NCBI GenBank assembly: GCA_022843165.1
Contig: JALHOD010000005.1
Coordinates: 124,001 to 188,000 of the forward strand
DNA length: 64,000 nucleotides
Direction of reading: 5' to 3'
From: Pseudorhodoplanes sp.
GTDB lineage: Bacteria > Pseudomonadota > Alphaproteobacteria > Rhizobiales > Xanthobacteraceae
Shown here: piece after piece, positions 1,097-47,455 of the stretch
Layout: every line of letters begins with the position of its first letter
Position numbering within the stretch: the first letter of the stretch is position 1
Translations under genes and position numbers: made by a program
The notes under the pieces: generated by a model
The model's database searches: none
Told to the model about the DNA's origin: nothing
Seen by the model: only the letters and a program-made list of their open reading frames with translations

Positions 1097-2836
1097 ATGA
1101 CCCAGCGGCCCGCCGACCGTCTCGCCATTGCCCTTGCGCAGCTCAACCCCGTGGTCGGGGATGTGGCGGGCAATGCCGACAAATTGCGCCGGGCGCGCGC
1201 CGCGGCCGCGGGCGAGGGGGCCGATCTCGTGATCGTCCCCGAATTGTTCCTGGCCGGTTATCCCCCGGAGGATCTGGTGCTCAAGCCCGCCTTCCAGGCG
1301 GCGTGCCGGGCCGAGACCGAAAAACTGGCGCGGGACACCGCCGATGGCGGCCCCGCCCTCGTTGTCGGCACCCCATGGCTGGAGAACGGCAAGCTCTACA
1401 ATGCGGTCGCCCTGCTGGATGGCGGCCGGATTGCCGGCCTGCGCTTCAAGGTCGATCTGCCGAATTACGGCGTGTTCGACGAGAAGCGCGTCTTCACGCC
1501 GGGACCGCTGCCGGGGCCGGTCAGCTTCCGCGGCGTGCGGCTCGGCATTCCGATCTGCGAGGATATCTGGGGACCAGAGCCGGTCGAATGCATCCATGAA
1601 ACCGGCGGCGAAATCCTGCTGGTGCCGAACGGTTCGCCCTATCGCCGCGGCGTCGTCGACCAGCGCTTGAGCGTGGCGGTCGCGCGGGTGACGGAAACCG
1701 GATTGCCTCTGGTCTATCTCAACCAGGTGGGCGGACAGGACGAACTGGTGTTCGAAGGCGCGTCCTTCGTCCTGAACGGCGACGGATCGCTGGCGGCGCA
1801 GCTTCCCGCCTTTGCGGAGGCGATCGTCACCACGCATTGGACGCGCACGGCGGAAGGCTGGCGTTGCGCGCCCGGTCCGGTCGCCGCAATCGAGCCGCAG
1901 GAAAAGTCCGACTACACCGCCTGCGTTCTGGGACTGCGCGACTATGTGACCAAGAACGGTTTCCCCGGCGTGGTGCTCGGGCTGTCGGGCGGCGTGGATT
2001 CCGCGCTGGTCGCCGTGATGGCCGTGGACGCGCTCGGTTCCGAGCGCGTGCGCTGCCTGATGCTGCCATACAAGTTCACGTCGCGGGAATCGCTCGCCGA
2101 TGCCGCGCTGGTCGCGACGGCGCTGGGCGTGCAATACGACACGCTGCCGATCGCCAGCGCCGTGGAAGGACTGGAAGCCGCGCTGGCGCCACTGATGGCG
2201 GGCCTGCCGCGCGACGTCACCGAAGAGAATCTGCAGGCGCGCGCCCGCGGCGTCATCGTGATGGGCGTTTCCAACAAGTTCGGCCTCATGGTGCTCACGA
2301 CCGGCAACAAGTCCGAGATGTCGGTCGGCTATGCCACGCTGTATGGCGACATGAATGGCGGCTTCAATCCGGTGAAGGATCTGTACAAGACCGAAGTCTA
2401 CCGTCTGTCGCGTCTGCGCAACGCATGGAAGCCGGCGCTGGCGCTGGGCCCGTCCGGCCGCGTGATCCCGGACAACATCCTGACGCGCGCACCGACCGCC
2501 GAGCTGCGCGAAAACCAGAAGGACGAGGATTCGCTGCCGCCTTATGACGTGCTGGACGCCATTCTGGAACGTCTGGTTGAGCGCGAAGAGGCCGTTGCCA
2601 CCATCGCCGAGGCCGGGTTCGACCGCGACACGGTGATGAAGGTCGAGCGCATGCTGCACATCGCCGAATACAAGCGGCGGCAGGCGGCGCCGGGCGTGAA
2701 AGTGACCCTGAAAAATTTCGGGCGTGATCGCCGCTACCCGATCGTCAACAAGTTCCGCGATCCCGGCACGCCGCTGCCGCAGCCCGATATGTCGGCGGCA
2801 AGCGGTGCGGTGAAAACCGAGGCGTTCGATTTCTGA
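1097..2836 (+). CDS. nadE: Glutamine-dependent NAD+ synthetase
   Basis: The 579-residue protein makes NAD+ from nicotinic acid adenine dinucleotide, ATP and glutamine. The N-terminal half is a nitrilase-fold glutaminase with the triad Glu49, Lys118 and Cys154 (in IPICEDIWG). The C-terminal half is the synthetase, with the ATP-pyrophosphatase P-loop SGGVDS at residues 297-302 and a later TTGNKSE segment. The length and two-domain layout match the glutamine-using NadE type. The ATG at 1097 gives the normal family start (IALAQLNPVVGD). It converges on the DUF2865 gene with 40 bases between stops. Confidence 0.97.
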   Translation: MTQRPADRLAIALAQLNPVVGDVAGNADKLRRARAAAAGEGADLVIVPELFLAGYPPEDLVLKPAFQAACRAETEKLARDTADGGPALVVGTPWLENGKLYNAVALLDGGRIAGLRFKVDLPNYGVFDEKRVFTPGPLPGPVSFRGVRLGIPICEDIWGPEPVECIHETGGEILLVPNGSPYRRGVVDQRLSVAVARVTETGLPLVYLNQVGGQDELVFEGASFVLNGDGSLAAQLPAFAEAIVTTHWTRTAEGWRCAPGPVAAIEPQEKSDYTACVLGLRDYVTKNGFPGVVLGLSGGVDSALVAVMAVDALGSERVRCLMLPYKFTSRESLADAALVATALGVQYDTLPIASAVEGLEAALAPLMAGLPRDVTEENLQARARGVIVMGVSNKFGLMVLTTGNKSEMSVGYATLYGDMNGGFNPVKDLYKTEVYRLSRLRNAWKPALALGPSGRVIPDNILTRAPTAELRENQKDEDSLPPYDVLDAILERLVEREEAVATIAEAGFDRDTVMKVERMLHIAEYKRRQAAPGVKVTLKNFGRDRRYPIVNKFRDPGTPLPQPDMSAASGAVKTEAFDF

Positions 2837-2876
2837 TCACGCGCCGGAACGCACAGCGCTGAACTGTCGACATAGG

Positions 2877-3983
2877 CTATTGCGCGTTCAGGAATTTCGG
2901 TCCGACGCTGCGCACCGGCTTCTGGATGGCTTCGCCGGCACTGTCCTCGGCCGGTGTGGCCGGGGTGGTGCCGATGGTGGTGCCCTTCGGCGCCACGATC
3001 GGACGGCCTCTGGCGTCGCGCGGCGCCGACAGGGCCTTGGCGCGCTCTTCCGTCACGATGATGTCGCCGCGCTCCAGAACGGTCTGCCGGTCGTCGAGAT
3101 GCTTGAGCGCATCCGCCCAGCTTTCGCCCTGGCGCTTGCAGCTGCAGGCCGAGTTGTATTCCTGCTTGAACCGGAAGGCATTGGGCAGGGCGGTATAAGG
3201 CTGGCCGTTGATCGACACCGCCTTGGAAATGTCTTCGCCGGGATTGCGATACGAGAACAGGACGACTTCGGCGGCCGGGCACATGCGCTGGCAGGTGCGC
3301 TCGTCGTCGCGGAACCGGTCCTGCGAGGTCGAGAACGAAATCGGAAAGAACGACCCGTCGCAGGTGCGGACGCAGACCGTGCGGAAGCCCGAGCCTATCT
3401 GTTGCTGTTCCGGCGCGAAGATCGAGCCGCCGCCGCCGAAGAGCTGGTCGAAGAAGCCGCGGCCTTGCGGCTGCGCGGCCGCCTGCCGGTATTGCGGCCC
3501 GCAATCGTTCTGCGACAAGGCGGCGAGCACCGCGCGGCGCTGTCCGTCGCGCTCGTAATTCGCGCCGGCGCCCTGCATCCGCTGCAGGTCGGCCTGGATG
3601 CGGTTCAGGTTGCCGCGCATGTCCTGGATTTGCTTGGTCAGCGGCCCGCATTGCTGGGCCTGCTGCGGATTGAACAACTGAAAGAAGCCGGAGCTCTCGC
3701 ATCCCATGCGGCGCGACTGGGCCGTGGTGCGGTCGAGCTCGCTCTGCTGGCGGGCAATGGCGTCTTCATAACGGCGGATTTGTTCGACGCGGGCGGGATC
3801 GCCGCTGGCGCGGTCGATACCCGAAAGCTGCGCTTCCAGCCGGCTGCAGACCTGATCCCGGCCGCCGCCCGGGGGCGGGGGGAAGGATTGCGCCGCGGCG
3901 GCAAAGCCCGTGGCCGCCAGCATCAGCGCGGCGAGATTGGATGTGCGGAACAGCGTCAAAACCATCGTCCCCGCCGACTTCAT
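2877..3983 (-). CDS. DUF2865 secreted protein
   Basis: About 368 residues from the ATG at 3983; a second ATG at 3965 follows a GGCGGGG stretch and is also possible. The N-terminus is a signal peptide (hydrophobic core, then AAAAQS), so the protein is exported. It has a Glu/Gln/Arg-rich coiled-coil-like region (about residues 40-130), then a cysteine-containing core (VCVRTCDGSFFPISFSTSQ, CQRMCPAAEVVLFSYRNPGEDI, ACSCKRQGESWADAL) typical of DUF2865, a family largely restricted to Rhizobiales. Its function is unknown. Paired Cys residues suggest disulfides in the periplasm. It is transcribed towards nadE and stands alone. Confidence 0.82.
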   Translation of the reverse strand: MKSAGTMVLTLFRTSNLAALMLAATGFAAAAQSFPPPPGGGRDQVCSRLEAQLSGIDRASGDPARVEQIRRYEDAIARQQSELDRTTAQSRRMGCESSGFFQLFNPQQAQQCGPLTKQIQDMRGNLNRIQADLQRMQGAGANYERDGQRRAVLAALSQNDCGPQYRQAAAQPQGRGFFDQLFGGGGSIFAPEQQQIGSGFRTVCVRTCDGSFFPISFSTSQDRFRDDERTCQRMCPAAEVVLFSYRNPGEDISKAVSINGQPYTALPNAFRFKQEYNSACSCKRQGESWADALKHLDDRQTVLERGDIIVTEERAKALSAPRDARGRPIVAPKGTTIGTTPATPAEDSAGEAIQKPVRSVGPKFLNAQ

Positions 3984-4101
3984 GTCCGGTTCCATGGCCG
4001 CTTGCCGGCCATCAGGCGCCCGTTTGGTTAGCAAAGTGTAAACGAACGGCTCAAGCAGCACAGGCAGCCTACAAGGTCAATGCGGCGAGGGCGACCCCCG
4101 C

Positions 4102-4980
4102 TCACACAACCGGTGGTTTGGGGCGGGTTTCGGCGCGCAGGTTCCACAGGATACCGGCCAGGATGATCAATCCGCCGACGAACACCCAGATATCGACCGT
4201 CTCTCCGAAAAACCACCAGCCCACCACCGCGATCAGCGGGATGCGCAGGAAATCCAGCGGCGTCACCAGGCTGGCGTCGCCCCAGCGGAAGGCGTTGGTG
4301 AGACAATAATGCGCCGCCAGTCCCGCGACGCCGATGCCGAGCACGGACGGCAGATTCGAGAGATCCAGTTTCTGGACGAAGAGCGGGTCGCTGCCGGCAA
4401 GGCCCATCGGCAATTGCATCAGGTTCATCCAGAACACGATCGCAAAGGTAGTCGTATTCGAGGTCATCTTCTTGGTGAGGACGTTGAACACGGCGTAGAA
4501 CAACGCCGCCAGCAGCACCAGCAGCGAGGCGGGCTGGAAGGTCGCAAGACCCGGGCGCAGGATCACCAGCGCTCCGACAAAGCCGAACACGATCACGATC
4601 ATGCGGCCGACGGTCATCCGCTCGCCGAGAAACAGCACCGCCAGGATGACCACAAAGACCGGCAGCATGAATTCGAGCGTGAACACGACCGCAAGCGGCA
4701 GCAATGTGAGACTGAGCGCCCAAGAGTACTGACCGCCGAAATGCACCAGGCTGCGGATGAAATGCAGCCTGAGCTGTTGCGGCGCAAAACTCCTCCGCAA
4801 GTCCGGCCGGACAATCGCGAGCGATACCAGGATAATCAGCGCCACCGACGATCGGACGGTGAGAATCTCGAAAATGCTCAGACGTCCCGCAAGACCGCGC
4901 ACGGAGACGGCCATCACGGAAAAGGCGATGAGGGTGCCGGTCATCCAGAACAGGACCCGGCTGATCTGATGCAGTGTCAC
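4102..4980 (-). CDS. EamA/DMT-family transporter
   Basis: This 292-residue integral membrane protein has ten predicted hydrophobic segments arranged as two EamA repeats of five, the drug/metabolite transporter layout. Conserved features include LFLGERMTVGRMIVIVFGFVGALVIL in the first repeat and WWFFGETVDIWVFVGGLIILAG in the second. Family members mostly export metabolites or amino acids; the substrate here cannot be inferred. The frame opens with GTG at 4980. It lies 55 bases downstream of maiA on the same strand, so it may be the last gene of a marR-maiA-eamA transcript. Confidence 0.88.
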   Translation of the reverse strand: MTLHQISRVLFWMTGTLIAFSVMAVSVRGLAGRLSIFEILTVRSSVALIILVSLAIVRPDLRRSFAPQQLRLHFIRSLVHFGGQYSWALSLTLLPLAVVFTLEFMLPVFVVILAVLFLGERMTVGRMIVIVFGFVGALVILRPGLATFQPASLLVLLAALFYAVFNVLTKKMTSNTTTFAIVFWMNLMQLPMGLAGSDPLFVQKLDLSNLPSVLGIGVAGLAAHYCLTNAFRWGDASLVTPLDFLRIPLIAVVGWWFFGETVDIWVFVGGLIILAGILWNLRAETRPKPPVV

Positions 4981-5710: not shown

Positions 5711-6250
5711 TCAGTCGTCCTGTTCGCCCGTTTCGCCGTTGTCGGCAAGCGTCATCGATCTTTTGGTGAGTTGGTCCAGCGACCGCGCGAAGGCGGCGCG
5801 ATCGGCGGGATCGATGGCTTCGATGAGATGTCGGGAGAAGGCGAGCGCGCCGGGCGTCAGGTCCTCGTAGATCGCGCGCCCCTCGGATGTGAGCGACAGC
5901 AGCGATTCGCGCAGGTCATCCTTGTTGACCCGACGCTGGATGAGTTTGCGCTTCTCCAGATGCGCCACCGCCCGCGATACCTTGGTCTTGTGCATGTGGC
6001 TGTGCGCACCCACCGCCTTGCCGGTCATGACGCCGAACTGGCCGAGTGTCACCAGGACTCGCCATTCCGGCACGCCGATTCCGTAGCGTTGGGCATAGAG
6101 ACGCGACAGCGCCTGTGAGACCAGGCTGGCGGCGACATTGAGCTGATAGGGGAGAAATTCTTCGAGCTTCAGCGGGGCGTCGCCCGCCGCTCGCGCCTGG
6201 TCGTCGTGATCACCGGCCGGACCGTGGCCTGTTTTTGACTGTATAGCCAT
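5711..6250 (-). CDS. MarR-family transcriptional regulator
   Basis: This 179-residue protein has a MarR winged-helix fold: after a polar N-terminal extension of about 30 residues come PYQLNVAASLVSQALSRLYAQRYG, the recognition-helix region KTKVSRAVAHLEKRKLIQRRVNKDD, and the wing ending in LSLTSEGRAIYEDL. MarR proteins are usually repressors released by small aromatic ligands. Its place directly upstream of maiA suggests control of homogentisate catabolism; a palindrome in the hmgA promoter (8476-8489) is a candidate target. The regulatory target is inference. An IclR-type HmgR does this job in Pseudomonas, so a MarR protein would be a different solution. Confidence 0.9.
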   Translation of the reverse strand: MAIQSKTGHGPAGDHDDQARAAGDAPLKLEEFLPYQLNVAASLVSQALSRLYAQRYGIGVPEWRVLVTLGQFGVMTGKAVGAHSHMHKTKVSRAVAHLEKRKLIQRRVNKDDLRESLLSLTSEGRAIYEDLTPGALAFSRHLIEAIDPADRAAFARSLDQLTKRSMTLADNGETGEQDD

Positions 6251-6361
6251 GAAGGCGATGCGCGCCCGATTTGCTCCAGACCGGCGCGGACCATGACCGA
6301 ACTTTGAGCAACGTGCAACGGCGCGAGGCGGGTCCGCAGTCGCAGCTGAACCGGCCGGCGG

Positions 6362-6454
6362 TCAGTCCGTGGCGGTCCGGCGGCGCAAAAGCGCGTGGAT
6401 ATTTGGATAAGTGGTGATGGCGCCGAGCAGGAGAGTCATCAGCAGGAGCTTCAT
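6362..6454 (-). CDS. Possible 30-residue membrane peptide
   Basis: An ATG at 6454 opens a 30-codon frame ending at 6362 and coding MKLLLMTLLLGAITTYPNIH followed by an Arg-rich tail. It has a hydrophobic N-terminal helix and a positively charged C-terminus, as in single-pass small membrane proteins or a bare signal peptide. No strong ribosome-binding site is visible, and the ATG lies at the foot of an 11-bp inverted repeat (6452-6488). It is downstream of infA on the same strand. I consider it a candidate only. Confidence 0.3.
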   Translation of the reverse strand: MKLLLMTLLLGAITTYPNIHALLRRRTATD

Positions 6455-6488
6455 GGCTGTCGATCTCGTAAGGACACCGACAGCCATG
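6452..6488. repeat. Perfect 11-bp inverted repeat downstream of infA
   Basis: CATGGCTGTCG at 6452-6462 is repeated as its exact reverse complement CGACAGCCATG at 6478-6488, with a 15-base loop. On the plus strand it is followed by CTATTTTTATG, so it resembles a plus-strand terminator, although no plus-strand gene precedes it. On the minus strand it lies 38 bases beyond the infA stop and could act as a 3'-end stabilising hairpin. Confidence 0.55.
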
Positions 6489-6525
6489 CTATTTTTATGC
6501 CAGCCTCGGTGGCTGATGCCGATCG

Positions 6526-6798
6526 TCAGCGCTTGCGCACGAAGGTCTGCCGGCGGGTGGGCGGAGCGGCCATGGCGTTGCCGCGATGGCGGAAGCTGAT
6601 CCGTCCGCGCGTCAGATCGTAAGGTGACATTTCGACGATGACGCGGTCGCCCACGCCGGTGCGGATCTTGAACTTCCGCATCTTGCCGGCGGTGTAGGCC
6701 AGCACCTGGTGCTCGTTGTCGAGGGTCACCCGGAAGTGACCGTCGGGCAGCACCTCGGTGACGGTGCCGTCGAATTCCAGCATTTCTTCTTTAGCCAT
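6526..6798 (-). CDS. infA: Translation initiation factor IF-1
   Basis: This 90-residue protein is the single S1/OB-fold factor that binds the ribosomal A site during initiation. Diagnostic segments are [42 protein letters not shown] and [16 protein letters not shown]. After the usual end near residue 72 there is a basic tail ([12 protein letters not shown]), making it longer than the 72-residue E. coli protein. An AAGGA ribosome-binding site lies 7 bases before the ATG at 6798. It is 27 bases downstream of the DEAD-box helicase and probably co-transcribed with it, a pairing that fits RNA unwinding and initiation at low temperature. Confidence 0.95.
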
Positions 6799-6825
6799 GA
6801 AGCGATCCTTATCAGGTAAGCCGGA

Positions 6826-8214
<1,389 letters not shown>

Positions 8215-8541
8215 TAGACGAATCTTTCATGCAGCGAACCGTCCGCCGCCATTCAGGCATACGGATGCGTCCGCGGGGGTGGACAAGACACCCCGCGTGG
8301 TCTGGGCTGTCGATGGAATGAGATCGGGGAGAAAGGCAGGCCGAAAGCCAAATTGCTTTTGTTCAAGCTGGTTTTCGTTCACGCGGCCCGCAGGCGGCTG
8401 AAAAGCCGACTCCGATGTGTCTATATCGTCTTTCCATGTGGTGGTTTCAAGGCATTTATGCGCGAATTGACACTGGTTTCATATGTAACTAAAGCTTGAT
8501 GAACAAATAATGCTGCCTGAGGCGGCAAAAGGAGGATGTCC
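8215..8541. other. Divergent intergenic region between rhlE and hmgA
   Basis: These 327 bases separate two divergently transcribed genes and must carry both promoters. The hmgA side is A/T-richer and holds the TTGACA hexamer (8467-8472), the palindrome at 8476-8489 and the AAGGAGG ribosome-binding site (8529-8535). I see no convincing small gene; one short frame from the ATG at 8230 on the minus strand ends after ten codons. Confidence 0.6.
8467..8495 (+). promoter_or_regulatory. Candidate hmgA promoter with operator palindrome
   Basis: A consensus -35 element TTGACA lies at 8467-8472. A 17-base spacer then leads to a weak -10 (TAAAGC, 8490-8495). The spacer contains GTTTCATATGTAAC (8476-8489), a 14-bp palindrome with one mismatched pair centred on CATATG. 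A dimeric repressor bound between -35 and -10 would block polymerase, and the MarR protein encoded at 5711-6250 is the obvious candidate. The hexamers and palindrome are seen; the regulator assignment is inference. Confidence 0.5.
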
Positions 8542-36552: not shown

Positions 36553-38475
36553 ATGAAGAATGCCTCCACTGCTGTTTCGGCCGGCCCTGACGGTGGTGGG
36601 TCGTACGCGCATTCAAAGCCGAATTTCTTCGCCTTGACGCTGGGCAGCGTCGGTGTGGTCTATGGCGATATCGGCACCAGTGTCCTCTATGCCTTCCGCG
36701 AAGCGGTGAAGGCGGCGAGCGGAGATGCCGAAGGCTTTGTGACGGAAGCCACGGTGCTGGGTGTGCTGTCTCTCATCATCTGGACGCTCATCCTGGTCGT
36801 CACCGTCAAGTATGTCGTCATCCTGTTGCGGGCTGACAACAACGGCGAAGGGGGAACCCTGTCGCTGACCGCGCTCGCCTTTCGTGTCATGGGCAGGCGT
36901 GCGCCGCTGGTGCTGATGCTGGGCGTGATCGGCGCATCGATGTTCTACGGGTCGTCCTTCATCACGCCGGCATTGTCGGTGATGTCGGCGGTCGAGGGCC
37001 TCAAGGAAGTGTCGCCGCAATTTGATCCTTACGTCGTGCCGCTGACCGTTCTGATCCTGGTCGGTCTGTTTGCCGTGCAGTCGCATGGCACCGGTCGGGT
37101 GGCGATCCTGTTCGGTCCGATCACGCTTGTATGGTTCGTCACGATCGCTGTTTTGGGCGCGATCCATATCGCCGACGATCCGCGCGTTCTGTATGCGCTC
37201 AATCCTTATTACGGGATTGTGTTTCTGGCGCAGAACGGCTTTGTGGGACTGTTGACGCTGGGCGCGGTTTTTCTGGTCGCGACCGGCAGCGAAGCGCTCT
37301 ACGCCGATCTCGGGCATTTCGGGCGTAAGCCGATCCAGATGGCTTGGCTTGTCGTCGTTCTGCCGGCGCTGTTGCTGAATTATTTCGGGCAAGGCGCTCT
37401 TGTGCTGGCGAATCCGGCCGCGATCCGCGATCCTTTCTACAATCTGGTGCCCCAGGGCTTCCTGTTGCCGATGATCGTTCTTGCGACGATCGCCACTGTC
37501 ATTGCAAGCCAGGCTGTTATCACCGGCGCTTATTCCCTGACCCAGCAGGCCATCCAGCTCGGCCTGTTGCCGCGTCTGGAAATCAGGCACACGTCTGCCG
37601 CGCATTATGGGCAAATTTACATTCCGCGCATCAACACGATCCTGCTGATCGGTGTCCTTCTGCTGGTGCTCGTGTTCCGCAGTTCGGGCGCGTTGGCGTC
37701 GTCATATGTTCTGGCGGTTGCGGCCACCGAACTCGTGACGACATTTCTTGGGTTCATCGTCATTTGGCAGTTATGGCAATACCGGTTCTGGACGACGGCT
37801 TTGCTGATGGTTCCGTTCATCGTCATCGACGTCGCGTTCTTTCTGGCGACAGGATTGAAGTTGCTGGAAGGGGCGTGGGTGCCGGTGCTGCTGGGCGCCG
37901 TGATCGTCATGATCATGCTGACTTGGCGGCGCGGAACGCACATGCTGTCCGACAAGACGCGCAAGATTGAAGTGCCTCTGGAATCCCTGCTGCGCAGCCT
38001 GGAGAAGAAGCCGCCGCACGTGGTGCCCGGCACCGCGGTGTTCCTGACCAGCGATCCGGCCTTTGCGCCGACCGCGCTCATGCACAACCTCAAGCACAAC
38101 AAGGTGCTGCATGAGCACAACGTGATCCTGACCATCGTCGCCGGCGATACGCCGCGCGTGACCGAAGAGGATCGCGTCACCATGACGCCGGTGTCGCCGC
38201 ATTTCAGCCGGATCTCGCTCAAGTTCGGCTATATGGAACAACCCAATGTGCCCAAGGCACTGGCGATCGCGCGCAAACAGGGCTGGACCTTCGACATCAT
38301 GTCGACGTCGTTTTTCCTGTCGCGGCGCTCGCTCAAGCCGTCGGCCCATTCCGGGATGCCGGTCTGGCAGGACCGGCTGTTCATCAGGTTGGCCAAGAGC
38401 GCCAGCGACGCCACCGACTTCTTCCAGATTCCGACCGGGCGGGTGGTGGAAGTGGGCACCCAGGTCACCATCTGA
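36553..38475 (+). CDS. kup: Kup potassium transporter, first and diverged paralogue
   Basis: The 640-residue KUP/HAK/KT protein has about 12 membrane helices and a C-terminal cytoplasmic domain. It keeps [53 protein letters not shown] and [21 protein letters not shown]. It has lost two conserved stretches: YG[D/E]xxITPA reads YGSSFITPA, without the acidic residue, and YGIAVTGTM reads YVLAVAATE. It may have altered K+ affinity, a regulatory role or reduced transport. A second, canonical copy follows in tandem. Confidence 0.95.
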
Positions 38476-38530: not shown

Positions 38531-38671
38531 TGAGCGTTGTGACGCCAAGCCCGCTGTCCTTGCATGGCTGGGGCCGGGATTTGCGGCCCGACCGGCCGCG
38601 ACGCCGCAGGACATTCGGCGTATAGCGCCGTCCCGCGTTTTTGCGGTGCAGCATCCAGAGGAGTTCCAGCC

Positions 38672-40591
38672 ATGGTTTTATCAGCCGCCGCCGGCCATGC
38701 CGGCGGCACCTCGCATGCCGACCGGAAACAGGGACATGCGGGTTTTTGGGCGCTGACGCTCGGCAGCATCGGCGTGGTCTACGGCGACATCGGCACCAGT
38801 CCGCTATACGCGGTGCGCGAATCCGTGACGGCCGCCGTGGGCGCGGGCAATCCCGCAAGCGAAGCCGCGGTGCTCGGCATTCTGTCCCTGATCATCTGGG
38901 CGTTGATCCTGGTGGTTACGGTGAAATACGTCATCATTCTGCTGCGCGCCGACAATAACGGTGAGGGCGGAACGCTGGCTCTCATGGCGCTGGCGCATCG
39001 CGCATTGCAGCGCGGCGGCGGATTGGTGGTTCTGCTCGGCATCGTGAGCGCGGCGCTGTTCTACGGCGACGCCATGATCACGCCGGCCTTGTCCGTTCTC
39101 TCCGCGGTGGAGGGCCTGAAGATCGTGACACCGGCCTTCGAGCCGTATGTCGTGCCGCTCGCGATCGTGATTCTGGTCGCCCTGTTCGCCGTGCAGTCAC
39201 GCGGGACGGCCAGCGTTGCAGCCTATTTCGGTCCGATCACCCTGGTCTGGTTCATCGCACTGGCGGGAGCCGGTCTCTGGCATATCGGCGACAACCCGGC
39301 GGTGCTGCGCGCCTTCGATCCGCGCTATGGCGCAATCTTTGTGATCGAGCACGGCGTAATCGGCCTGCTGACTCTCGGCGCGGTGTTCCTGGTGGTGACC
39401 GGTGCGGAGGCGCTTTATGCCGATCTCGGACATTTCGGCAAGAAGCCCATCCGCATGGCCTGGCTCACCGTGGTGCTGCCGGCGCTGACCATCAATTATC
39501 TCGGGCAGGGCGCTCTGGTTCTGGCCGATCCAAAAGCGATCGAGAATCCGTTTTTCCTGCTCTATCCGGAATGGGCGATCCTGCCGATGGTTGGACTCGC
39601 CACGGCGGCAACCGTCATCGCCAGCCAGGCCGTGATCACCGGCGCCTATTCCATCACCAGCCAGGCGATCCAGCTGGGATTGTTGCCGCGGTTTGAAATC
39701 CGTCATACGTCCGAATCCCAGTTCGGCCAGATCTTCATGCCGCGCGTCAACATGCTGCTGCTTCTCGGCGTTGTGGTTCTGGTGATCTTCTTCCGCTCGT
39801 CCAGTGCGCTGGCCTCGGCCTACGGTATCGCCGTGACCGGCACCATGGTTGTGACCGCGATGATGGCCTTCGTCGTTGTCTGGAAAGTGTGGAAATGGGG
39901 ACCGGTGGCGGCTGCCTTGCTCATGGTCCCGTTTCTGTTGATCGACCTGGTGTTCCTGTCCGCCAACATGCTCAAGGTGTTTGAGGGCGGCTGGATGCCG
40001 CTCGCGCTCGGCGCGCTGGTCATGCTGGTGATGTATTCTTGGCGGCGCGGCAGCCGGGTGCTGTTCCAGAAGACGCGCAAGCTGGAAATTCCGTTGCGCG
40101 ATCTGGTGACGTCGCTGGAAAAAAAGCCGCCGCAGAGGGTGCCCGGCACAGCCGTGTTCCTGACCAGCGATCCGGACAGCGCCCCGACCGCTCTGCTGCA
40201 CAGCCTGAAGCATTACAAGGTGCTGCATGAGCAGAACGTGATCCTGACCGTCGAGTATGCGCCGACGCCGCGCGTGGATGAATCCGAGCGCGTCCGTATG
40301 GAGCCGATCGGCGAGACCTTCATGCGGGTGGTGCTGCGGTTCGGTTTCATGGAACGGCCCAACGTGCCGAAGGCGCTGGCGGTCGCGCGCAAGCAGGGCT
40401 GGACCTTCGACATCATGTCGACGTCGTTCTTTCTGTCCCGGCGCGCGCTCCGGCCGGCGAAGGATTCGGTTTTGCCGCTCTGGCAGGACCGCCTCTTTAT
40501 CGGCCTGGCCAGAAGCGCCAGCGATGCCACCGACTATTTCCAGATTCCGACCGGGCGGGTCGTGGAAGTTGGCACGCAGGTGACGGTATAG
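38672..40591 (+). CDS. kup: Kup potassium transporter, second and canonical paralogue
   Basis: This 639-residue low-affinity K+/H+ symporter has all family hallmarks: [29 protein letters not shown] with the conserved acidic residue, [30 protein letters not shown], and a C-terminal domain ending in [18 protein letters not shown] 8 bases before the ATG at 38672 fixes the start; an upstream in-frame region is not conserved. It is nearly identical in length to the first copy, and the C-terminal 150 residues of the two are highly similar, so they are a tandem duplication. Confidence 0.96.
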
Positions 40592-42127: not shown

Positions 42128-43030
42128 TCACCGCCACCTGCGGTGTAGCCACAGCCATTGTTCGGGATGCTCGCGCACCCAGCCTTCCACCACGCTGGTG
42201 ATGGTCTGCATCGTGCCGGCAATGTCGATCTTGCCTTCGGCGTCGCGCACCGGCGGAATTTCCTCGGTCAGCTCGATGAAAAAGCGGTGGTTCGGCAGGC
42301 GCGCGACGCGCACGCCATGGATCGGGCAATCGACCTGGCGGGCGAGGCGGGCGATCAGCGGGTTGGCATTGGTCTGCCGTCCGAAAAAGGTCACCGGCAC
42401 GCCACGCACGTAATATTGGTCGACCAGCATCCCGACATGCAGGCCTTCGGCCAGAGCGTCGGCCGCCTTCACCGGAGCGTCGAGCCCGGTCTTGATCAGC
42501 CGCCCCATATTCACCCCGCGCGTCGCCATCACCATGTCGGCGACCGCGCCGATATTGGGCGCGCGATAGAGCACGGCGCTGGGCAGCCCGTGTGCCGCGC
42601 CCGGCAGGGCCGGCATTTCCCAGTTGGCCAGATGGGCGGCGAAGACCAGCGCCGGTTTGCCGTCGTCGCGCAGCCTGATGAAGCGCTCTTCGGATTCGGG
42701 CGAGAATTCGATGTGGCTGTTGCCCCGGTTCTCGGGGTCGTGATCCCAGATACGGTCGAGATGGGCGAACTCCACCGCGATGCGGCCGAGATTGTCCCAG
42801 ACCCCGCCGAGAATGGTCTCGATCTCTTCCGGTGTTTTTTCCGGAAAGGCGGCGGCGAGATTGGCGCGGCCGATCCGGTGTTCGCGCAGCTTGGGCCCGA
42901 TCCGGCGCATGAATCCGCCGGCAAAGTCCGACATCCTGTGCGGATCGGTCCAGCGGATCGCCTTGATCAGTCCGACCGCCAGGCGGCCCAGCACCGCGTC
43001 GCGCAGGGCGTTCGGAATCCGGATGCGCAT
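42128..43030 (-). CDS. lpxXL: Lipid A very-long-chain acyltransferase LpxXL
   Basis: The 300-residue LpxL/LpxM-family enzyme has the HX4E catalytic motif (His133, Glu138 in AHLANWEMP), an N-terminal membrane anchor, and GLHVGMLVDQYYVRGVPVTFFGRQT. It should transfer the 26- to 30-carbon hydroxy fatty acid from AcpXL to lipid A. It is the last gene of the acpXL cluster and its ATG overlaps the adh stop (TGATG). Its stop abuts the stop of the convergent potF gene without a gap. Confidence 0.93.
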   Translation of the reverse strand: MRIRIPNALRDAVLGRLAVGLIKAIRWTDPHRMSDFAGGFMRRIGPKLREHRIGRANLAAAFPEKTPEEIETILGGVWDNLGRIAVEFAHLDRIWDHDPENRGNSHIEFSPESEERFIRLRDDGKPALVFAAHLANWEMPALPGAAHGLPSAVLYRAPNIGAVADMVMATRGVNMGRLIKTGLDAPVKAADALAEGLHVGMLVDQYYVRGVPVTFFGRQTNANPLIARLARQVDCPIHGVRVARLPNHRFFIELTEEIPPVRDAEGKIDIAGTMQTITSVVEGWVREHPEQWLWLHRRWR

Positions 43031-44052
43031 CAGAAGCTGACGATCACTTTTCCGAACACCTGACGGCTCTCCAGCCGTTCGAGGCCGCGCTCCAGATCCT
43101 CGAGCCCGACTTCGGTATCGATCACCGGCGTCAGCCCGCCCGCCATCTTGTCGAGGCTGTCGCGAATGTTGCGCATCGAGGCGCCGAACGAGGCGAGGAT
43201 CTTGTATTGCTGCTGGAACAGCTGCATCAGGTTGATGGTGACGGTGGGGCCGGCGGTCGAGCCGCAGGTGACCAGGCGGCCGCCCTTTTTCAGGCAGAGC
43301 AGCGAGCCGTTGAAGCCTTCGCCGCCGACATGCTCGAAGACGACGTCGACACCCTTCTTACCGGTGAGTTTGCGCACGCGGCCCTCGAAACGGTCAGTGC
43401 GGTAGTTGATCACATGATCGGCGCCGATTGCCTTGGCCTTCTCGATCTTGTCGTCGCTGCCCACCGTGGTGATGATCGTGCAGCCGAGCTGCTTCGCCAT
43501 CTTGATCGCGGTCGAGCCGATCCCCGAGCCGCCGGCATGGACCAGAATGGTTTCGCCCGGCTGCAGCTTGGCGTTGTCGAACAGCATGTGCTCGACGGTG
43601 GAGAAGGCGACCGGCGCGCAGGCGGCGTCGCGCATCGACACGCCCTTCGGCACCGGGATCACCAGGCGTTCCTGCATGTTCACGAGTTCGCGCGCAAAAC
43701 CGTCGACATGGAAGCCCATGATGCCGGACACATTTTCACAAAGGTTGTCGCGGCCTTCGCGGCAATATTTGCAGGTGCCGCAGGTCAGCGCGCCATACAT
43801 GACCACTGGATCGCCGACCTTGAAGCGGGTCACGCCGGGGCCGACGGCGGCGATTTCACCGGCCGCTTCGGCACCCACGACCAGCGGATAGGCGCGCTTG
43901 GCGAAGGCCATGCCGCGATAGCCCCAGACGTCGATGTGGTTGAGGCCGACGGCGCGCACGCGGATCTGCACTTCGCCCTCGGCGGGCGGCGGCGGGGGCG
44001 GCAGGTCGGTCAGCTCGAGCTTCCGGTCACCGAGCAGGGCAAGCGCACGCAT
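43030..44052 (-). CDS. adh2XL: Zinc-binding dehydrogenase of the acpXL cluster
   Basis: The 340-residue MDR-family oxidoreductase has the catalytic-zinc segment VGLNHIDVWGYRGM, a four-Cys structural-zinc loop (GALTCGTCKYCREGRDNLCEN), the Rossmann motif ILVHAGGSGIGSTAIKMAKQLG and ITTVGSDDKIEKAKAIGADHVI. In rhizobia the equivalent gene (adh2XL) is required in, or linked to, very-long-chain fatty-acid synthesis and may act as an enoyl or keto reductase. It follows fabF1XL by 104 bases. Confidence 0.92.
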   Translation of the reverse strand: MRALALLGDRKLELTDLPPPPPPAEGEVQIRVRAVGLNHIDVWGYRGMAFAKRAYPLVVGAEAAGEIAAVGPGVTRFKVGDPVVMYGALTCGTCKYCREGRDNLCENVSGIMGFHVDGFARELVNMQERLVIPVPKGVSMRDAACAPVAFSTVEHMLFDNAKLQPGETILVHAGGSGIGSTAIKMAKQLGCTIITTVGSDDKIEKAKAIGADHVINYRTDRFEGRVRKLTGKKGVDVVFEHVGGEGFNGSLLCLKKGGRLVTCGSTAGPTVTINLMQLFQQQYKILASFGASMRNIRDSLDKMAGGLTPVIDTEVGLEDLERGLERLESRQVFGKVIVSF

Positions 44053-44156: not shown

Positions 44157-45443
44157 TCAGGCCGGCTCGCCGGTCAGCACCAGGCAGGTGTTCTGGCCGC
44201 CAAATCCGAAGGAATTGGAGATCACCCGCCGCACCCTGGCGTCGCGCGCCACATTCGGCACCACGTCGAGCGGAATCGCCGGGTCCGGCATGGCGTAATT
44301 GATGGTGGGTGGAATGCGCTGGTTGATGATGGTCAGCGCCGACACCACCGCCTCGATCGCGCCGGCGGCGGTCAGGGTATGCCCGACCATCGACTTGTTG
44401 GACGAGATCGGAATGTTCTTCAGATGCTCGCCGAACACGGTGGAGACGCCGAGATATTCCATCTTGTCATTTTCCGGCGTCGAGGTGCCGTGCGCGTTGA
44501 TGTAGTCGACGTCTTCCGGCGTCACGCCGGCATCGGCCAGCGCATTGCGCATGCAGGAGATCACCGGCTTGCCGTCGGGGCTCGAGCGGGTGCGATGGAA
44601 ATTGTCGGCCTTCTCGCCGCAGCCTTCCACCACGCCGAGAATTCTGGCGCCGCGCGCCACGGCATGATCGTAGTTTTCCAGCACGACCGCGGCGGCGCCT
44701 TCCGCCAGCACGAAGCCGTCGCGGTTCTTGGAGAAGGGGCGCGAGGCGCCCTGCGGGGCGGCATTGTTGGTCGAGAGCGCGGACAACAGCGAGAACCGCA
44801 CCACCGATTCCGCAGTGATCGAGCCGTCGGCGCCGATCGCAAGCGCGGCGTTGCATTCGCCGCGCTGGATCGCTTCCAGCCCGAGCTGGATCGCGGTCGC
44901 GCCGGAGGCGCAGGCGGTGGTCAGCGAGATCGGCGAGCCCTGCGTGCCGAAATGCTCGGCCAGATGCTCGGCAACGATGCCGTATTTCGAGACTTCGTAG
45001 AACGGTGCGAATTCCTGGCGGGCGGCGGCGCGCACCAGATCGCCGTAATCGATCTTTTCGTTGGCGCCAGACGCGCCGGCCAGCGCGAAACGCTGCGACC
45101 ATTCGATCTCGATCGGGGGCAGGGCGAGAAACAGCGGACCCGGAAAATTGCCCTTCGCGCCGATGCTGGATTCGGCGATCGCTTCGGTGCCGGCGAGCCG
45201 CGCCAGTTTTTCCGACAGCTGCGCCGATACCATGCCGTCTTCGTAGACATGATCGACGGTGCCGGCGATGGTAGTGCGCAGGCCGTCGGTGGCGAAACGC
45301 GTGATGGTGCGAATGCCGGATTCCCCGGCGGTCAGTTTTTTCCAGTTGTCGGCCTTGCCGGTGCCGAGCGGAGTCACGATGCCCATGCCGGTGATCGCGA
45401 CCACCGGGCGCCCGGCCTTGTCCCGTCGTCCCTGATTTGCCAT
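44157..45443 (-). CDS. fabF1XL: Ketosynthase FabF1XL (active)
   Basis: The 428-residue beta-ketoacyl-ACP synthase II has its catalytic Cys178 (TTACASG), His318 (NAHGTST), Lys350 and His355 (NKSMVGHTLTAAG) all intact, so it can condense malonyl and acyl groups. It should elongate chains on AcpXL to C26-C30. The ATG at 45443 is 10 bases after the upstream gene, with GAGGCG before it. It probably pairs with the catalytically dead FabF2XL as a heterodimer, as in type II polyketide synthases. Confidence 0.95.
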   Translation of the reverse strand: MANQGRRDKAGRPVVAITGMGIVTPLGTGKADNWKKLTAGESGIRTITRFATDGLRTTIAGTVDHVYEDGMVSAQLSEKLARLAGTEAIAESSIGAKGNFPGPLFLALPPIEIEWSQRFALAGASGANEKIDYGDLVRAAARQEFAPFYEVSKYGIVAEHLAEHFGTQGSPISLTTACASGATAIQLGLEAIQRGECNAALAIGADGSITAESVVRFSLLSALSTNNAAPQGASRPFSKNRDGFVLAEGAAAVVLENYDHAVARGARILGVVEGCGEKADNFHRTRSSPDGKPVISCMRNALADAGVTPEDVDYINAHGTSTPENDKMEYLGVSTVFGEHLKNIPISSNKSMVGHTLTAAGAIEAVVSALTIINQRIPPTINYAMPDPAIPLDVVPNVARDARVRRVISNSFGFGGQNTCLVLTGEPA

Positions 45444-45453
45444 CGCTGTCGCC

Positions 45454-46644
45454 TCAATCGATCCGTTCAATCAGCGCCAAGCCTTCGCCGCGCCAATGGC
45501 CGACGCTGGTGACCAGCGCCTGGCACACGCCCTTGGATGGCGCGGTGCCGATATCGCCGCTGCCGGCGGCCGGAAACAGCGTTCCCGCGCGCACAGCCTG
45601 GCAGCCCAAGGCGATATTGGCGAGGAATTGCGCCTCCATCCCGTTCCCAATATGGGTCGCCGTGGCGCGAACCGGAAGACCGATATCGGCGAGAACTTTG
45701 CGCTCCTCCGAGGTGGCCGGCTCGGCGCCGGACGCACCGGAGACGACCACGGCGCAGTCTTTTTTGACCTTGCCGGCGATACTGTCCCATTCGCTGCGCA
45801 GCGTGGCCGCGGCGTCGCCGGGCTTGCGCGGATTGCGGCTGGACAGCACCGAGGACAGGCGCGCCACCGGCTTGGCGCCGCGCTTTTCGGCGTGTTCGCG
45901 GCTCTCGATGACTACGAAGGCGCCCATGGCGGCAAGCGCAATAGCGCCGTTCGGGCCGCGATCCCAGACCGGCTTGAAGGGACCTTCGAGCAGCGGTGTG
46001 CCCAGCTTGAACAGCAACACCAGATCCCAGCGCGTGCCGTTATAGGCGCCGCCGACCAGGCTGATCTCGCTCTGTCCGGCCGCGATGCGCGAATGCGCAA
46101 CGCGCAAGGCGTCGACGCCGGAGGATTCCTCGCCCATGAAGGTGCGCGACGATCCCACCACGCCATGCACCAGCGAAATATTGCCGGCGAGCAGGTTCGG
46201 CAATTGCGCCAGGAACAGGGTGGGACGCAGGTCGCTCATCAGGCGTTCGTTGACGAAAGCGTCCGGCTTGTCGGCCTTGCGAACGTCGGTGAGGATCGCC
46301 GAGTCGACCGCGACATCGCGCTCGCCGCCGCCGGCGGCCACGATCATGTCGGTCTTGTCGAGAATTTCGGTCTTGCCGGCGACGCCGGCATCGGTGAGCG
46401 CGAGACCCGCGGCGTAGACGCCGATGCGCTGCCAGGCTTCCATCTGGCGCTGGTCGCCCTTTTTCGGAATCTGGCTGTCGAGATTGAGCGGCACCACCGG
46501 AAAGGTGGTGTAGGGCGCAAATGTCTTGTCGTCATAGGGCGGAGGATCGCCCGCCATCAGGCGCGACCAGTGCTGCTCCAGCCCCTCGCCGAGCGCGGAG
46601 ACGATGCCGACACCGGTGATCCAGACTTCGCGCCGATCGCTCAC
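45454..46644 (-). CDS. fabF2XL: Ketosynthase-like FabF2XL lacking catalytic residues
   Basis: The 396-residue protein has the thiolase-fold ketosynthase architecture but no catalytic residues. The position of the nucleophile Cys is Glu173 (GEESSGVDAL), the NAHGT region reads VSGASGAEPAT (no His), and GHTLTAAG is GNGMEAQF (His replaced by Asn). By analogy with chain-length factors of type II polyketide synthases it may control acyl length on its active partner FabF1XL. The start is a GTG at 46644 that overlaps the fabZ stop (GTGA). It lies between fabZXL and fabF1XL, the usual rhizobial order. Confidence 0.92.
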   Translation of the reverse strand: MSDRREVWITGVGIVSALGEGLEQHWSRLMAGDPPPYDDKTFAPYTTFPVVPLNLDSQIPKKGDQRQMEAWQRIGVYAAGLALTDAGVAGKTEILDKTDMIVAAGGGERDVAVDSAILTDVRKADKPDAFVNERLMSDLRPTLFLAQLPNLLAGNISLVHGVVGSSRTFMGEESSGVDALRVAHSRIAAGQSEISLVGGAYNGTRWDLVLLFKLGTPLLEGPFKPVWDRGPNGAIALAAMGAFVVIESREHAEKRGAKPVARLSSVLSSRNPRKPGDAAATLRSEWDSIAGKVKKDCAVVVSGASGAEPATSEERKVLADIGLPVRATATHIGNGMEAQFLANIALGCQAVRAGTLFPAAGSGDIGTAPSKGVCQALVTSVGHWRGEGLALIERID

Positions 46645-47111
46645 TTTTTGAATTCCTGCAGCGGAAAGTTGAGCTGCTTGGCCCATGTGACCATGGTGTT
46701 CTGAAATTCCGGGCTTGGATAGGGGATGATGCGGTAGGTCAGTCGCGCATCGGCGATCGCGGTATCGCCCGAGGAGATCTTGCCGTCGGCGATCGCGAAG
46801 CCCGAGCCGTCATGCACGATCTTGCCCTCGGTCGAAATGTCCATGCCCGGAAACACCGCGCCGCGGATTTTGGCTTCCTTTACGCCGGCCAGAACCGGCA
46901 ATCCGGAAAAGCCCGTGATCGCGCTGACCAGCCAGCCGCAGGTCTGCGCCATGTTCTCGATCAGCAACACGCCCGGCATCAGCGGATAGCCCGGGAAATG
47001 GCCCTCGAAAACCGGGCTCTCCATCGGCACCCTGGATTCGGTCTTGATCCAGCGCTCATCGGCCTTGACCTCGACGAACCGGTCGAGCATCTGGAAATAT
47101 TCAAGCCGCAT
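46641..47111 (-). CDS. fabZXL: 3-Hydroxyacyl-ACP dehydratase, FabZXL
   Basis: The 156-residue hotdog-fold protein has the FabZ active-site motif EGHFPGYPLMPGVLLIENMAQTCGWL with catalytic His (in GHFPG) and Glu (in LIENMAQ). It dehydrates the 3-hydroxyacyl chain during very-long-chain elongation on AcpXL. It overlaps the fabF2XL GTG start by four bases, so the two are translationally coupled, and begins 62 bases after acpXL. Confidence 0.93.
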   Translation of the reverse strand: MRLEYFQMLDRFVEVKADERWIKTESRVPMESPVFEGHFPGYPLMPGVLLIENMAQTCGWLVSAITGFSGLPVLAGVKEAKIRGAVFPGMDISTEGKIVHDGSGFAIADGKISSGDTAIADARLTYRIIPYPSPEFQNTMVTWAKQLNFPLQEFKK

Positions 47112-47173: not shown

Positions 47174-47455
47174 TCACGCACCCTTCGCGGCGATCAGTTC
47201 GTCGATGCGGGCGCAGAGATTCTTCAGGACGAAATACTGTTCGGTGGTGGCCTGGCCGTCGTTGATCTTTTGCGTCCACTGTTCCAGCGGCAGCTTGATC
47301 CCGAACGCCTTGTCGATGGCAAAGGCGATATCCAGAAAATCGAGACTGTCGATTTTCAGATCGTCGATGGCATGGCTTTCCGGCGTGATCGTGTCGCGCG
47401 GAATATCGCAGGTCTCGGCAATGATATCGGCGACTTTATCAAACGTTGTGGACAT
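47174..47455 (-). CDS. acpXL: Acyl carrier protein AcpXL
   Basis: The 93-residue acyl carrier protein has the phosphopantetheine site Ser37 in [18 protein letters not shown]. It is longer than ordinary AcpP and has the C-terminal segment typical of AcpXL ([26 protein letters not shown]), which carries the 26- to 30-carbon hydroxy fatty acid for lipid A. The ATG at 47455 begins the operon. It is the first gene of acpXL-fabZXL-fabF2XL-fabF1XL-adh-lpxXL. Confidence 0.95.

What the first reader, a model, noticed from the sequence alone, without database searches (positions are those of the whole stretch)
45454..46644. Ketosynthase-like FabF2XL has lost its Cys, His and His catalytic residues
In the active partner (44157-45443) the triad Cys178, His318 and His355 and Lys350 are intact. 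At the matching places FabF2XL has Glu173 (GEESSG), no His in the NAHGT region (SGASGAEPA) and Asn in place of His (GNGMEA). An acidic or amide residue replacing the Cys resembles the Gln of polyketide chain-length factors. This suggests a KS/CLF-type heterodimer that sets the C26-C30 length of the lipid A acyl chain, so chain length may be measured by a dead subunit. The alignment is by eye.
Basis: partly seen in the sequence, partly recalled or inferred. Interest (0 to 1): 0.7.

Follow-up and report, generated by a model that had tools for sequence, protein, structure and literature searches.

The report
Dead ketosynthase partner for lipid A
A gene annotated as an enzyme that lengthens the very long fatty acid of the bacterial outer membrane has lost its catalytic residues throughout the relatives examined, and probably works as the inactive half of a two-part enzyme, much like the chain-length factors of antibiotic synthesis.

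Summary
FabF2XL (45454-46644) has Glu173 where FabF has Cys163, no His at the His303 place, no Lys at the Lys335 place and Asn334 at the His340 place. FabF1XL next door keeps all four. In 151 FabF2XL proteins Glu replaces Cys in 151, and His303 and Lys335 are absent in 151, but His340 is kept in 139, so the window's Asn is a local loss. 41 of 151 have no Cys at all.

Both families occur in the same 64 of 249 genomes, and 147 of 150 FabF2XL copies have FabF1XL beside them. Conservation is mirrored: FabF1XL conserves its active site; FabF2XL conserves FabF 126-163, which reaches the partner in ketosynthase dimers (recalled), while FabF1XL lets most of it drift. Best fit: a heterodimer with one working pocket, as in KS/CLF pairs. 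Modelling is compatible but weak, and the KS/CLF control is mixed. That FabF2XL sets chain length is untested; one Bradyrhizobium cluster is linked to C26 and C30 chains. Kinship to CLFs is unresolved.

The parts
45454..46644 (-). fabF2XL: ketosynthase-fold protein without the catalytic residues (396 aa, GTG start)
   Evidence: (NF005084, 520.8 bits, cut-off 320)
46126..46131 (-). codons of Glu172-Glu173; Glu173 is at the place of the FabF nucleophile Cys163
   Evidence: EE in 151 of 151
46126..46242 (-). codons of residues 135-173 (FabF 126-163): near-invariant arm and strand leading to the Glu pair; 18 of 41 near-invariant residues lie here
   Evidence: residues 141-146 are the only run of three or more under pLDDT 50 in the monomer model
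45730..45732 (-). codon of Ser305, at the place of FabF His303
   Evidence: Thr or Ser in 142 of 151
45643..45645 (-). codon of Asn334, at the place of FabF His340 (139 of 151 keep His)
44157..45443 (-). fabF1XL: partner ketosynthase with the catalytic residues C178, H318, K350, H355 intact
   Evidence: (NF005076, 731.2 bits, cut-off 629)
46641..47111 (-). fabZXL: FabZ-like dehydratase
   Evidence: PF07977 over cut-off; best FabZ models below their cut-offs; found in 93 of 96 related loci
47174..47455 (-). acpXL: special acyl carrier protein (93 aa)
   Evidence: NF005079, 178 bits, cut-off 83; found in 95 of 96 related loci
43030..44052 (-). adh2XL: medium-chain dehydrogenase, possibly an enoyl reductase
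   Evidence: found in 64 of 96 related loci
42128..43030 (-). lpxXL: acyltransferase that moves the very long chain to lipid A
   Evidence: NF005120, 413 bits, cut-off 273; found in 86 of 96 related loci

Best explanation
FabF2XL is a catalytically dead ketosynthase that forms an obligate heterodimer with FabF1XL. FabF1XL carries out each condensation on chains held by AcpXL. FabF2XL lends its conserved arm and interface strand (FabF 126-163) to complete and shape the partner's acyl pocket, so that chains far longer than those of ordinary FabF can be held and extended. Shown here: the catalytic residues are lost in every relative examined, the two genes keep together, and conservation is mirrored between the two proteins. 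Inferred: physical pairing and completion of the pocket. Only guessed: that FabF2XL decides the final C26-C30 length.
For: Glu at Cys163 in 151 of 151, no His303 and no Lys335 in 151 of 151; FabF1XL keeps Cys in 148 of 149 (one row reads X) and His303, Lys335 and His340 in 149 of 149. The two families occur in the same 64 of 249 genomes. 147 of 150 FabF2XL copies have FabF1XL beside them on the same strand; two of the three exceptions are at contig ends. A conjugative plasmid carries the pair without the other four cluster genes within 13 kb. Conservation percentile (0 = most conserved) at FabF 128-140: FabF2XL 0.13, FabF1XL 0.83; homodimeric FabF 0.30 (30 sequences). Of 381 windows of 25 residues, FabF 126-150 is the most lopsided. 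Read through the stop as one chain, a natural pair gives pTM 0.73, and its top-ranked Foldseek match (E-value tied with a FabF entry) is the PfaC KS-CLF didomain 6riw, TMq 0.70 over 962 columns; single ketosynthases, which can cover only half the model, give 0.42-0.43 in rows 2-50. An A. fabrum fabF2XL insertion mutant has no very long chains in lipid A, and the gene on a plasmid restores them partly (PMC11901934, passages).
Against: No interaction or activity data were found. In the single-chain model residues 144-175 (the FabF2XL arm and strand) are under pLDDT 50, as are other runs in both halves; the overlay on 6riw has rmsd 7.4, runs in the order dead-active against KS-CLF, and so shows a ketosynthase pseudo-dimer but not which partner is which; AlphaFold knows ketosynthase dimers. 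No unrelated-pair control was folded. The known KS/CLF pairs are a mixed control: at 128-140 they lean the same way (KS-alpha 0.51, CLF 0.39), at 154-162 the opposite way (0.44, 0.64). FabF1XL aligns poorly with FabF around 110-137, which can inflate its apparent variability. One FabF2XL copy (L074) has 6.5 kb downstream without FabF1XL, although its genome holds a second FabF1XL on another contig (G333:C78). His340 is kept in 139 of 151. The A. fabrum insertion may be polar on the genes behind it. The segment was named after the data were seen.
Confidence: 0.72

Rival explanations
1. FabF2XL is the heterodimer partner, but serves to dock AcpXL or to stabilise and activate FabF1XL; chain length is set by the FabF1XL pocket and by the acyltransferases that remove the chain.
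For: One Bradyrhizobium cluster is linked to C26 and C30 chains, and lpxXL loss removes the C26 one while the C30 one stays (PMC5613085, passages and section 17). In the ishigamide KS-CLF complex the carrier protein is reported to interact with the CLF (PMC8358021, passages). FabF1XL has its own fixed pocket change, Pro at FabF 108 in 149 of 149.
Against: The most conserved part of FabF2XL is the stretch that faces the partner in ketosynthase dimers (the facing is recalled). No docking surface was mapped here.
Confidence: 0.35
2. FabF2XL pairs with itself or stands alone as a chaperone or shuttle for acyl-AcpXL.
For: It is a well-folded ketosynthase fold by itself in prediction (mean pLDDT 90.2, pTM 0.89). 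One copy lies without FabF1XL next to it (L074).
Against: Occurrence in the same 64 of 249 genomes and adjacency for 147 of 150 copies. It does not explain why FabF1XL lets its own arm drift.
Confidence: 0.1
3. FabF2XL is an enzyme with altered chemistry, for example a malonyl-ACP decarboxylase that primes the chain, using Glu in place of Cys.
For: Glu-Glu is present in 151 of 151 and His340 in 139 of 151. Cys-to-Gln ketosynthases that decarboxylate malonyl-ACP are known (recalled).
Against: His303 and Lys335 are missing in 151 of 151; decarboxylation by ketosynthases is held to need the His pair (recalled). The other active-site loops rank as poorly conserved (0.51-0.60 at 263-275, 298-312 and 330-345).
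Confidence: 0.06

Closest known systems
[quoted passage not shown]
   Same: A dead ketosynthase paralogue is encoded next to an active one in a cluster with its own acyl carrier protein. Nine Streptomyces CLFs carry an acidic residue plus Gln at FabF 162-163, beside Glu-Glu here. A review (PMC12664062, passages) describes an obligate heterodimer of an active and an inactive KS with the channel at the interface.
   Different: Gln, Asp303, Lys335 and Arg340 in the nine CLFs against Glu, mostly Thr/Ser, mostly Gly/Ala and mostly His here. Gene order is reversed: the dead gene comes first. The product is a lipid A acyl chain. Kinship is unresolved. The actinorhodin CLF sequence itself was not aligned.
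KS-CLF didomain of polyunsaturated fatty acid synthases (PfaC, 6riw)
   Same: A fatty-acid, not polyketide, system in which a dead CLF beside a KS serves C10 and C20 chains (PMC9702510, passages). It is the top-ranked Foldseek match of the paired model.
   Different: One multidomain chain in the order KS-CLF; here two separate proteins. No PfaC sequence was aligned here.
ApeO-ApeC of aryl polyene synthesis
   Same: KS-CLF heterodimer in Gram-negative bacteria (PMC8358021, passages and one section).
   Different: ApeC is about half-size (240 aa in E. coli CFT073) and has lost most of the second thiolase domain; FabF2XL is full length.
NCBIfam NF005084 / PRK06519 'beta-ketoacyl-ACP synthase'
   Same: FabF2XL is a member (520.8 bits, cut-off 320).
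   Different: The name implies a condensing activity that the residues do not support.

Membership tests
FabF/KAS II condensing enzyme | Catalytic Cys163, His303, His340 and Lys335 | tested here: not met
   E, S, N and A at these places in the window protein; Cys, His303 and Lys335 absent in 151 of 151
FabF/KAS II condensing enzyme | Ketosynthase fold over the whole length | tested here: met
   Monomer model, pLDDT 90.2; 376 residues aligned with S. pneumoniae FabF 2rjt_A, Z 44.9, rmsd 2.9
NF005084 (PRK06519) | Score above the curated cut-off | tested here: met
   520.8 bits against 320
Type II PKS chain-length factor | Ketosynthase paralogue without the nucleophile Cys | tested here: met
   Glu in 151 of 151
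Type II PKS chain-length factor | Gln at the Cys place, as in aromatic CLFs | tested here: not met
   Glu here; Gln in 9 of 9 Streptomyces CLFs. Other partner-like proteins vary: Ala in two polyene KS-beta, Arg in an Azospirillum one
Type II PKS chain-length factor | Gene next to its ketosynthase | tested here: met
   147 of 150 copies, in reversed order
Type II PKS chain-length factor | Obligate heterodimer with the ketosynthase | tested here: inconclusive
   pTM 0.73 and top match 6riw, but the interface stretch has pLDDT under 50 and no control pair was folded
Type II PKS chain-length factor | Common descent with CLFs | tested here: inconclusive
   Branch uniting FabF2XL and aromatic CLFs 80/66; a FabF2XL+FabF1XL clade is not rejected, p 0.369
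Type II PKS chain-length factor | Determines product length | not testable with these tools
   Needs enzyme assays or exchange experiments

The most novel reading that the evidence does not exclude
FabF2XL is a molecular ruler in lipid A synthesis. The growing chain runs from the FabF1XL Cys through the dimer interface into the emptied pocket of FabF2XL, and the invariant Glu172-Glu173 pair marks the far end, perhaps by bonding the (omega-1)-hydroxyl of the C26-C30 chain. The old catalytic site would have become the end-stop of the ruler. A narrow canal running across the dimer has been described for the ApeR homodimer (PMC8358021, section 7); the rest is inference.
Probability: 0.12. Interest if true: 0.85.

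Novelty: new variant of a known kind. Interest (0 to 1): 0.6.

Why it matters
The very long acyl chain of lipid A supports outer-membrane strength, stress tolerance and symbiosis in rhizobia and their relatives. Its two ketosynthase genes are described as two elongation enzymes. If one is a dead partner, the pathway has a single condensing site of KS/CLF type: a discrete fatty acid system built like a reducing polyketide synthase. That would explain why both genes are needed, would correct a family name in NCBIfam, and gives a concrete handle (arm and Glu pair) on how C26-C30 length arises.

Tried and rejected
Kinship to CLFs or origin by duplication of FabF1XL: a 56-row maximum-likelihood tree puts FabF2XL on a branch of 2.57 and cannot place it. 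Holding FabF2XL+FabF1XL together is not rejected (p 0.369), and the same test does not reject CLF+KS-alpha (p 0.275). Profile comparison scores: FabF 166, CLF 151, KS-alpha 142, polyene KS-beta 138, FabF1XL 126, polyene KS-alpha 90: no special kin. I therefore claim no descent.

Distant hits below the family cut-off: the five weak class hits L024-L028 carry Cys, His, Lys and His and look like ordinary ketosynthases. The Photobacterium plasmid hit is also an active-type ketosynthase.

Covariation between the two proteins was not run: the FabF2XL arm is nearly invariant, so little signal is possible. In Foldseek and VIA-align the FabF2XL monomer is closest to FabF entries; chains A of the ishigamide KS/CLF (6kxf, 6kxd; the ketosynthase chain by its name) come within 1.4 Z of the top, and no CLF chain is among the 50 rows shown, which excludes nothing. 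6riw is not among the 50 rows that VIA-align shows for the paired model, whose rows cover almost only the FabF1XL half.

The KS/CLF pairs as a control for mirrored conservation came out mixed: same direction at 128-140 and 141-153, opposite at 154-162; nine sequences each are few. FabF as the homodimer control ranks 0.30 at 128-140 and 0.26 at 154-162 but only 0.52 at 141-153.

Sampling: of the 64 genomes, the copies in six (G382, G413, G415, G418, G509, G510) were not fetched. Two fragments (L022 and the second copy in L064) were dropped from the counts. The 80 loci are the best of at least 577 and lean to Xanthobacteraceae and Bradyrhizobium. The hypergeometric p of 6e-10 for clustering of near-invariant residues is descriptive, since the segment was chosen after looking. 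The first-pass and second-pass alignments disagree at FabF 111, so I draw nothing from that column.

Full report
OBSERVATION. Both genes lie on the minus strand of a six-gene cluster: acpXL (47174-47455), fabZXL (46641-47111), fabF2XL (45454-46644), fabF1XL (44157-45443), adh2XL (43030-44052), lpxXL (42128-43030). NCBIfam names FabF2XL a 'beta-ketoacyl-ACP synthase' (NF005084, 520.8 bits, cut-off 320) and FabF1XL likewise (NF005076, 731.2 bits, cut-off 629). Pfam sees only the N-terminal ketosynthase domain in FabF2XL and both domains in FabF1XL. Against FabF, FabB and other ketosynthases (E. coli FabF numbering), FabF2XL has Glu at Cys163, Ser at His303, Ala at Lys335 and Asn at His340; FabF1XL has C, H, K, H. 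A phmmer alignment to FabF structures also places GEES on the nucleophile segment.

FAMILY. I gathered FabF2XL relatives from genomes of the class and the order, from named genome contigs and from two plasmids. After removing duplicates, the window copy and two fragments there were 150; with the window, 151. Glu is at the Cys place in 151 of 151, preceded by Glu in 151 of 151 and Gly in 151 of 151. His303 is absent in 151 of 151 (Thr 90, Ser 52, Cys 7, Asn 1, Gly 1) and Lys335 in 151 of 151. His340 is kept in 139 of 151. The residue opposite His303 in the window protein shifts between alignments (a gap, Gly), but none puts His there. No column has Cys in more than 30 of 151, and 41 proteins lack Cys altogether. 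FabF1XL keeps Cys in 148 of 149 (one row reads X) and both His and the Lys in 149 of 149.

PAIRING. In the same 249 genomes of the order, FabF2XL (E up to 1e-30) is found in 64 and FabF1XL (E up to 1e-140, set to leave out FabF) in 64, and the listed handles are the same (compared by eye). Of 150 FabF2XL copies, 147 have FabF1XL on the same strand in the same locus, beside or overlapping its open frame (134 within 200 nt). Two exceptions are at contig ends; the third (L074) is a second copy with 6.5 kb downstream, whose genome has a further FabF1XL on another contig (G333:C78). In loci of at least 8.9 kb, AcpXL is found in 95 of 96, FabZXL in 93, LpxXL in 86 and Adh in 64. On a conjugative plasmid of Bradyrhizobium sp. 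Ash2021 the pair stands without the other four within 13 kb.

MIRRORED CONSERVATION. Entropy ranks (0 = most conserved) by FabF numbering, FabF2XL against FabF1XL: 128-140, 0.13 and 0.83; 141-153, 0.18 and 0.60; 154-162, 0.10 and 0.29; 298-312, 0.52 and 0.21; 330-345, 0.51 and 0.23; 395-405, 0.37 and 0.08 (effective numbers 85 and 61). Of 381 windows of 25 residues the most lopsided is 126-150 (+0.64; mean -0.01, sd 0.25). Eighteen of 41 FabF2XL residues that match the window in at least 150 of 151 lie in residues 135-173, while 5 of 84 such FabF1XL residues (at least 148 of 149) lie in FabF 126-163. From ketosynthase structures (recalled) this stretch packs at the dimer interface and reaches the partner's acyl pocket. 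A homodimer with two working pockets should keep it: 30 FabF proteins rank 0.30 at 128-140 and 0.26 at 154-162, though 0.52 at 141-153. A heterodimer with one working pocket needs it only on the dead side. That is the pattern seen. The known pairs are a mixed control: KS-alpha against CLF (nine each) gives 0.51 and 0.39 at 128-140, 0.54 and 0.47 at 141-153, but 0.44 and 0.64 at 154-162. The alignment of FabF1XL to FabF is uncertain around 110-137, which can inflate its variability.

STRUCTURE. FabF2XL alone is predicted with pLDDT 90.2 and pTM 0.89; the only run of three or more residues under 50 is 141-146, inside the invariant arm, as might be expected if the arm needs a partner. It has the ketosynthase fold end to end (S. 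pneumoniae FabF 2rjt_A: Z 44.9, rmsd 2.9, 376 residues). In 29 of 78 loci examined the two genes lie in one frame with a single stop between them; 28 were read through as one chain. The L108 pair gives pTM 0.73 and pLDDT 74.9, but residues 144-175 and several other runs are under 50. Its top-ranked Foldseek match is the PfaC KS-CLF didomain 6riw over 962 columns (TMq 0.70, rmsd 7.4; E-value tied with a FabF entry), against TMq 0.42-0.43 for the single ketosynthases in rows 2-50, which can cover only one half. The match runs in sequence order, dead half on KS and active half on CLF, so it shows a ketosynthase pseudo-dimer, not the roles. No unrelated-pair control was folded. This is compatible with a KS-CLF arrangement and no more than that.

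GENETICS IN PRINT. An A. fabrum fabF2XL insertion mutant lacks very long chains in lipid A and the gene on a plasmid restores them in part (PMC11901934, passages); the insertion may be polar. In Bradyrhizobium ORS278 acpXL, fabZXL, fabF1XL and fabF2XL could not be disrupted (PMC5613085, passages and section 17). A. fabrum itself was not in my alignment; a Rhizobiaceae copy (Sinorhizobium sp. K101, L107) shows the same Glu.

HOW IT MAY WORK. FabF1XL condenses; FabF2XL completes its pocket across the interface; FabZXL dehydrates; Adh2XL, a medium-chain dehydrogenase with the structural zinc loop but without the usual catalytic zinc ligands (reading of motifs recalled), may reduce the enoyl bond; a housekeeping FabG would reduce the ketone (inference); LpxXL delivers the chain. 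The cluster then resembles a reducing type II polyketide synthase more than a pair of redundant FabF enzymes. Length setting by FabF2XL is a hypothesis. The ORS278 lipid A carries 26:0(25-OAc) and 30:0(2,29-2OH) with one cluster identified.

LITERATURE. I searched the held library for FabF2XL, AcpXL, ketosynthase and CLF terms. Four held papers name fabF2XL. In three of them I searched for 'chain length factor', 'catalytic' and 'heterodimer' and found none of these; in the fourth I looked only for the two gene names and 'chain length factor', and found no CLF mention. No held paper that these searches showed calls FabF2XL catalytically dead. Subscription papers are not held; in particular the JBC 2011 S. 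meliloti study (recalled) could not be read. PUFA-synthase papers describe a dead CLF beside a KS that serves C20 chains (PMC9702510, passages; PMC12895367, passages), so a dead KS partner in very long chain fatty acid synthesis has a precedent in multidomain systems.

Noticed in passing
window 43030-44052 (-): Adh2XL is called an alcohol dehydrogenase but keeps only the structural zinc Cys loop; its best NCBIfam scores are a quinone oxidoreductase model (215.7 bits) and others including acryloyl-CoA reductase (171 bits), all below cut-off. It may be an enoyl reductase.
   Followed up: partly
window 36553-38475 and 38564-40591 (+): Two Kup-type potassium transporter genes in tandem.
   Followed up: no
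L106 (Bradyrhizobium sp. Ash2021 conjugative plasmid) 5983-8504: A FabF2XL-FabF1XL pair alone, beside a methyltransferase gene, without AcpXL, FabZXL, Adh or LpxXL found within 13 kb.
   Followed up: partly
L064, L065 (genomes of family code f170): Two FabF2XL-FabF1XL clusters close together in one genome, one with AcpXL, FabZXL and Adh beside it and one without.
   Followed up: partly
L233 (Azospirillum brasilense Sp7 plasmid) 1691-4401: An active-type ketosynthase, a dead one (Arg at the Cys place, Asp at His303) and an acyl carrier protein in a row: an alphaproteobacterial KS/CLF-like cluster.
   Followed up: partly
window 45643-45645 (-): His340 is lost in the window protein and 11 other family members, to Asn, Gln, Thr, Ala or Tyr: perhaps the last catalytic residue still decaying.
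   Followed up: partly
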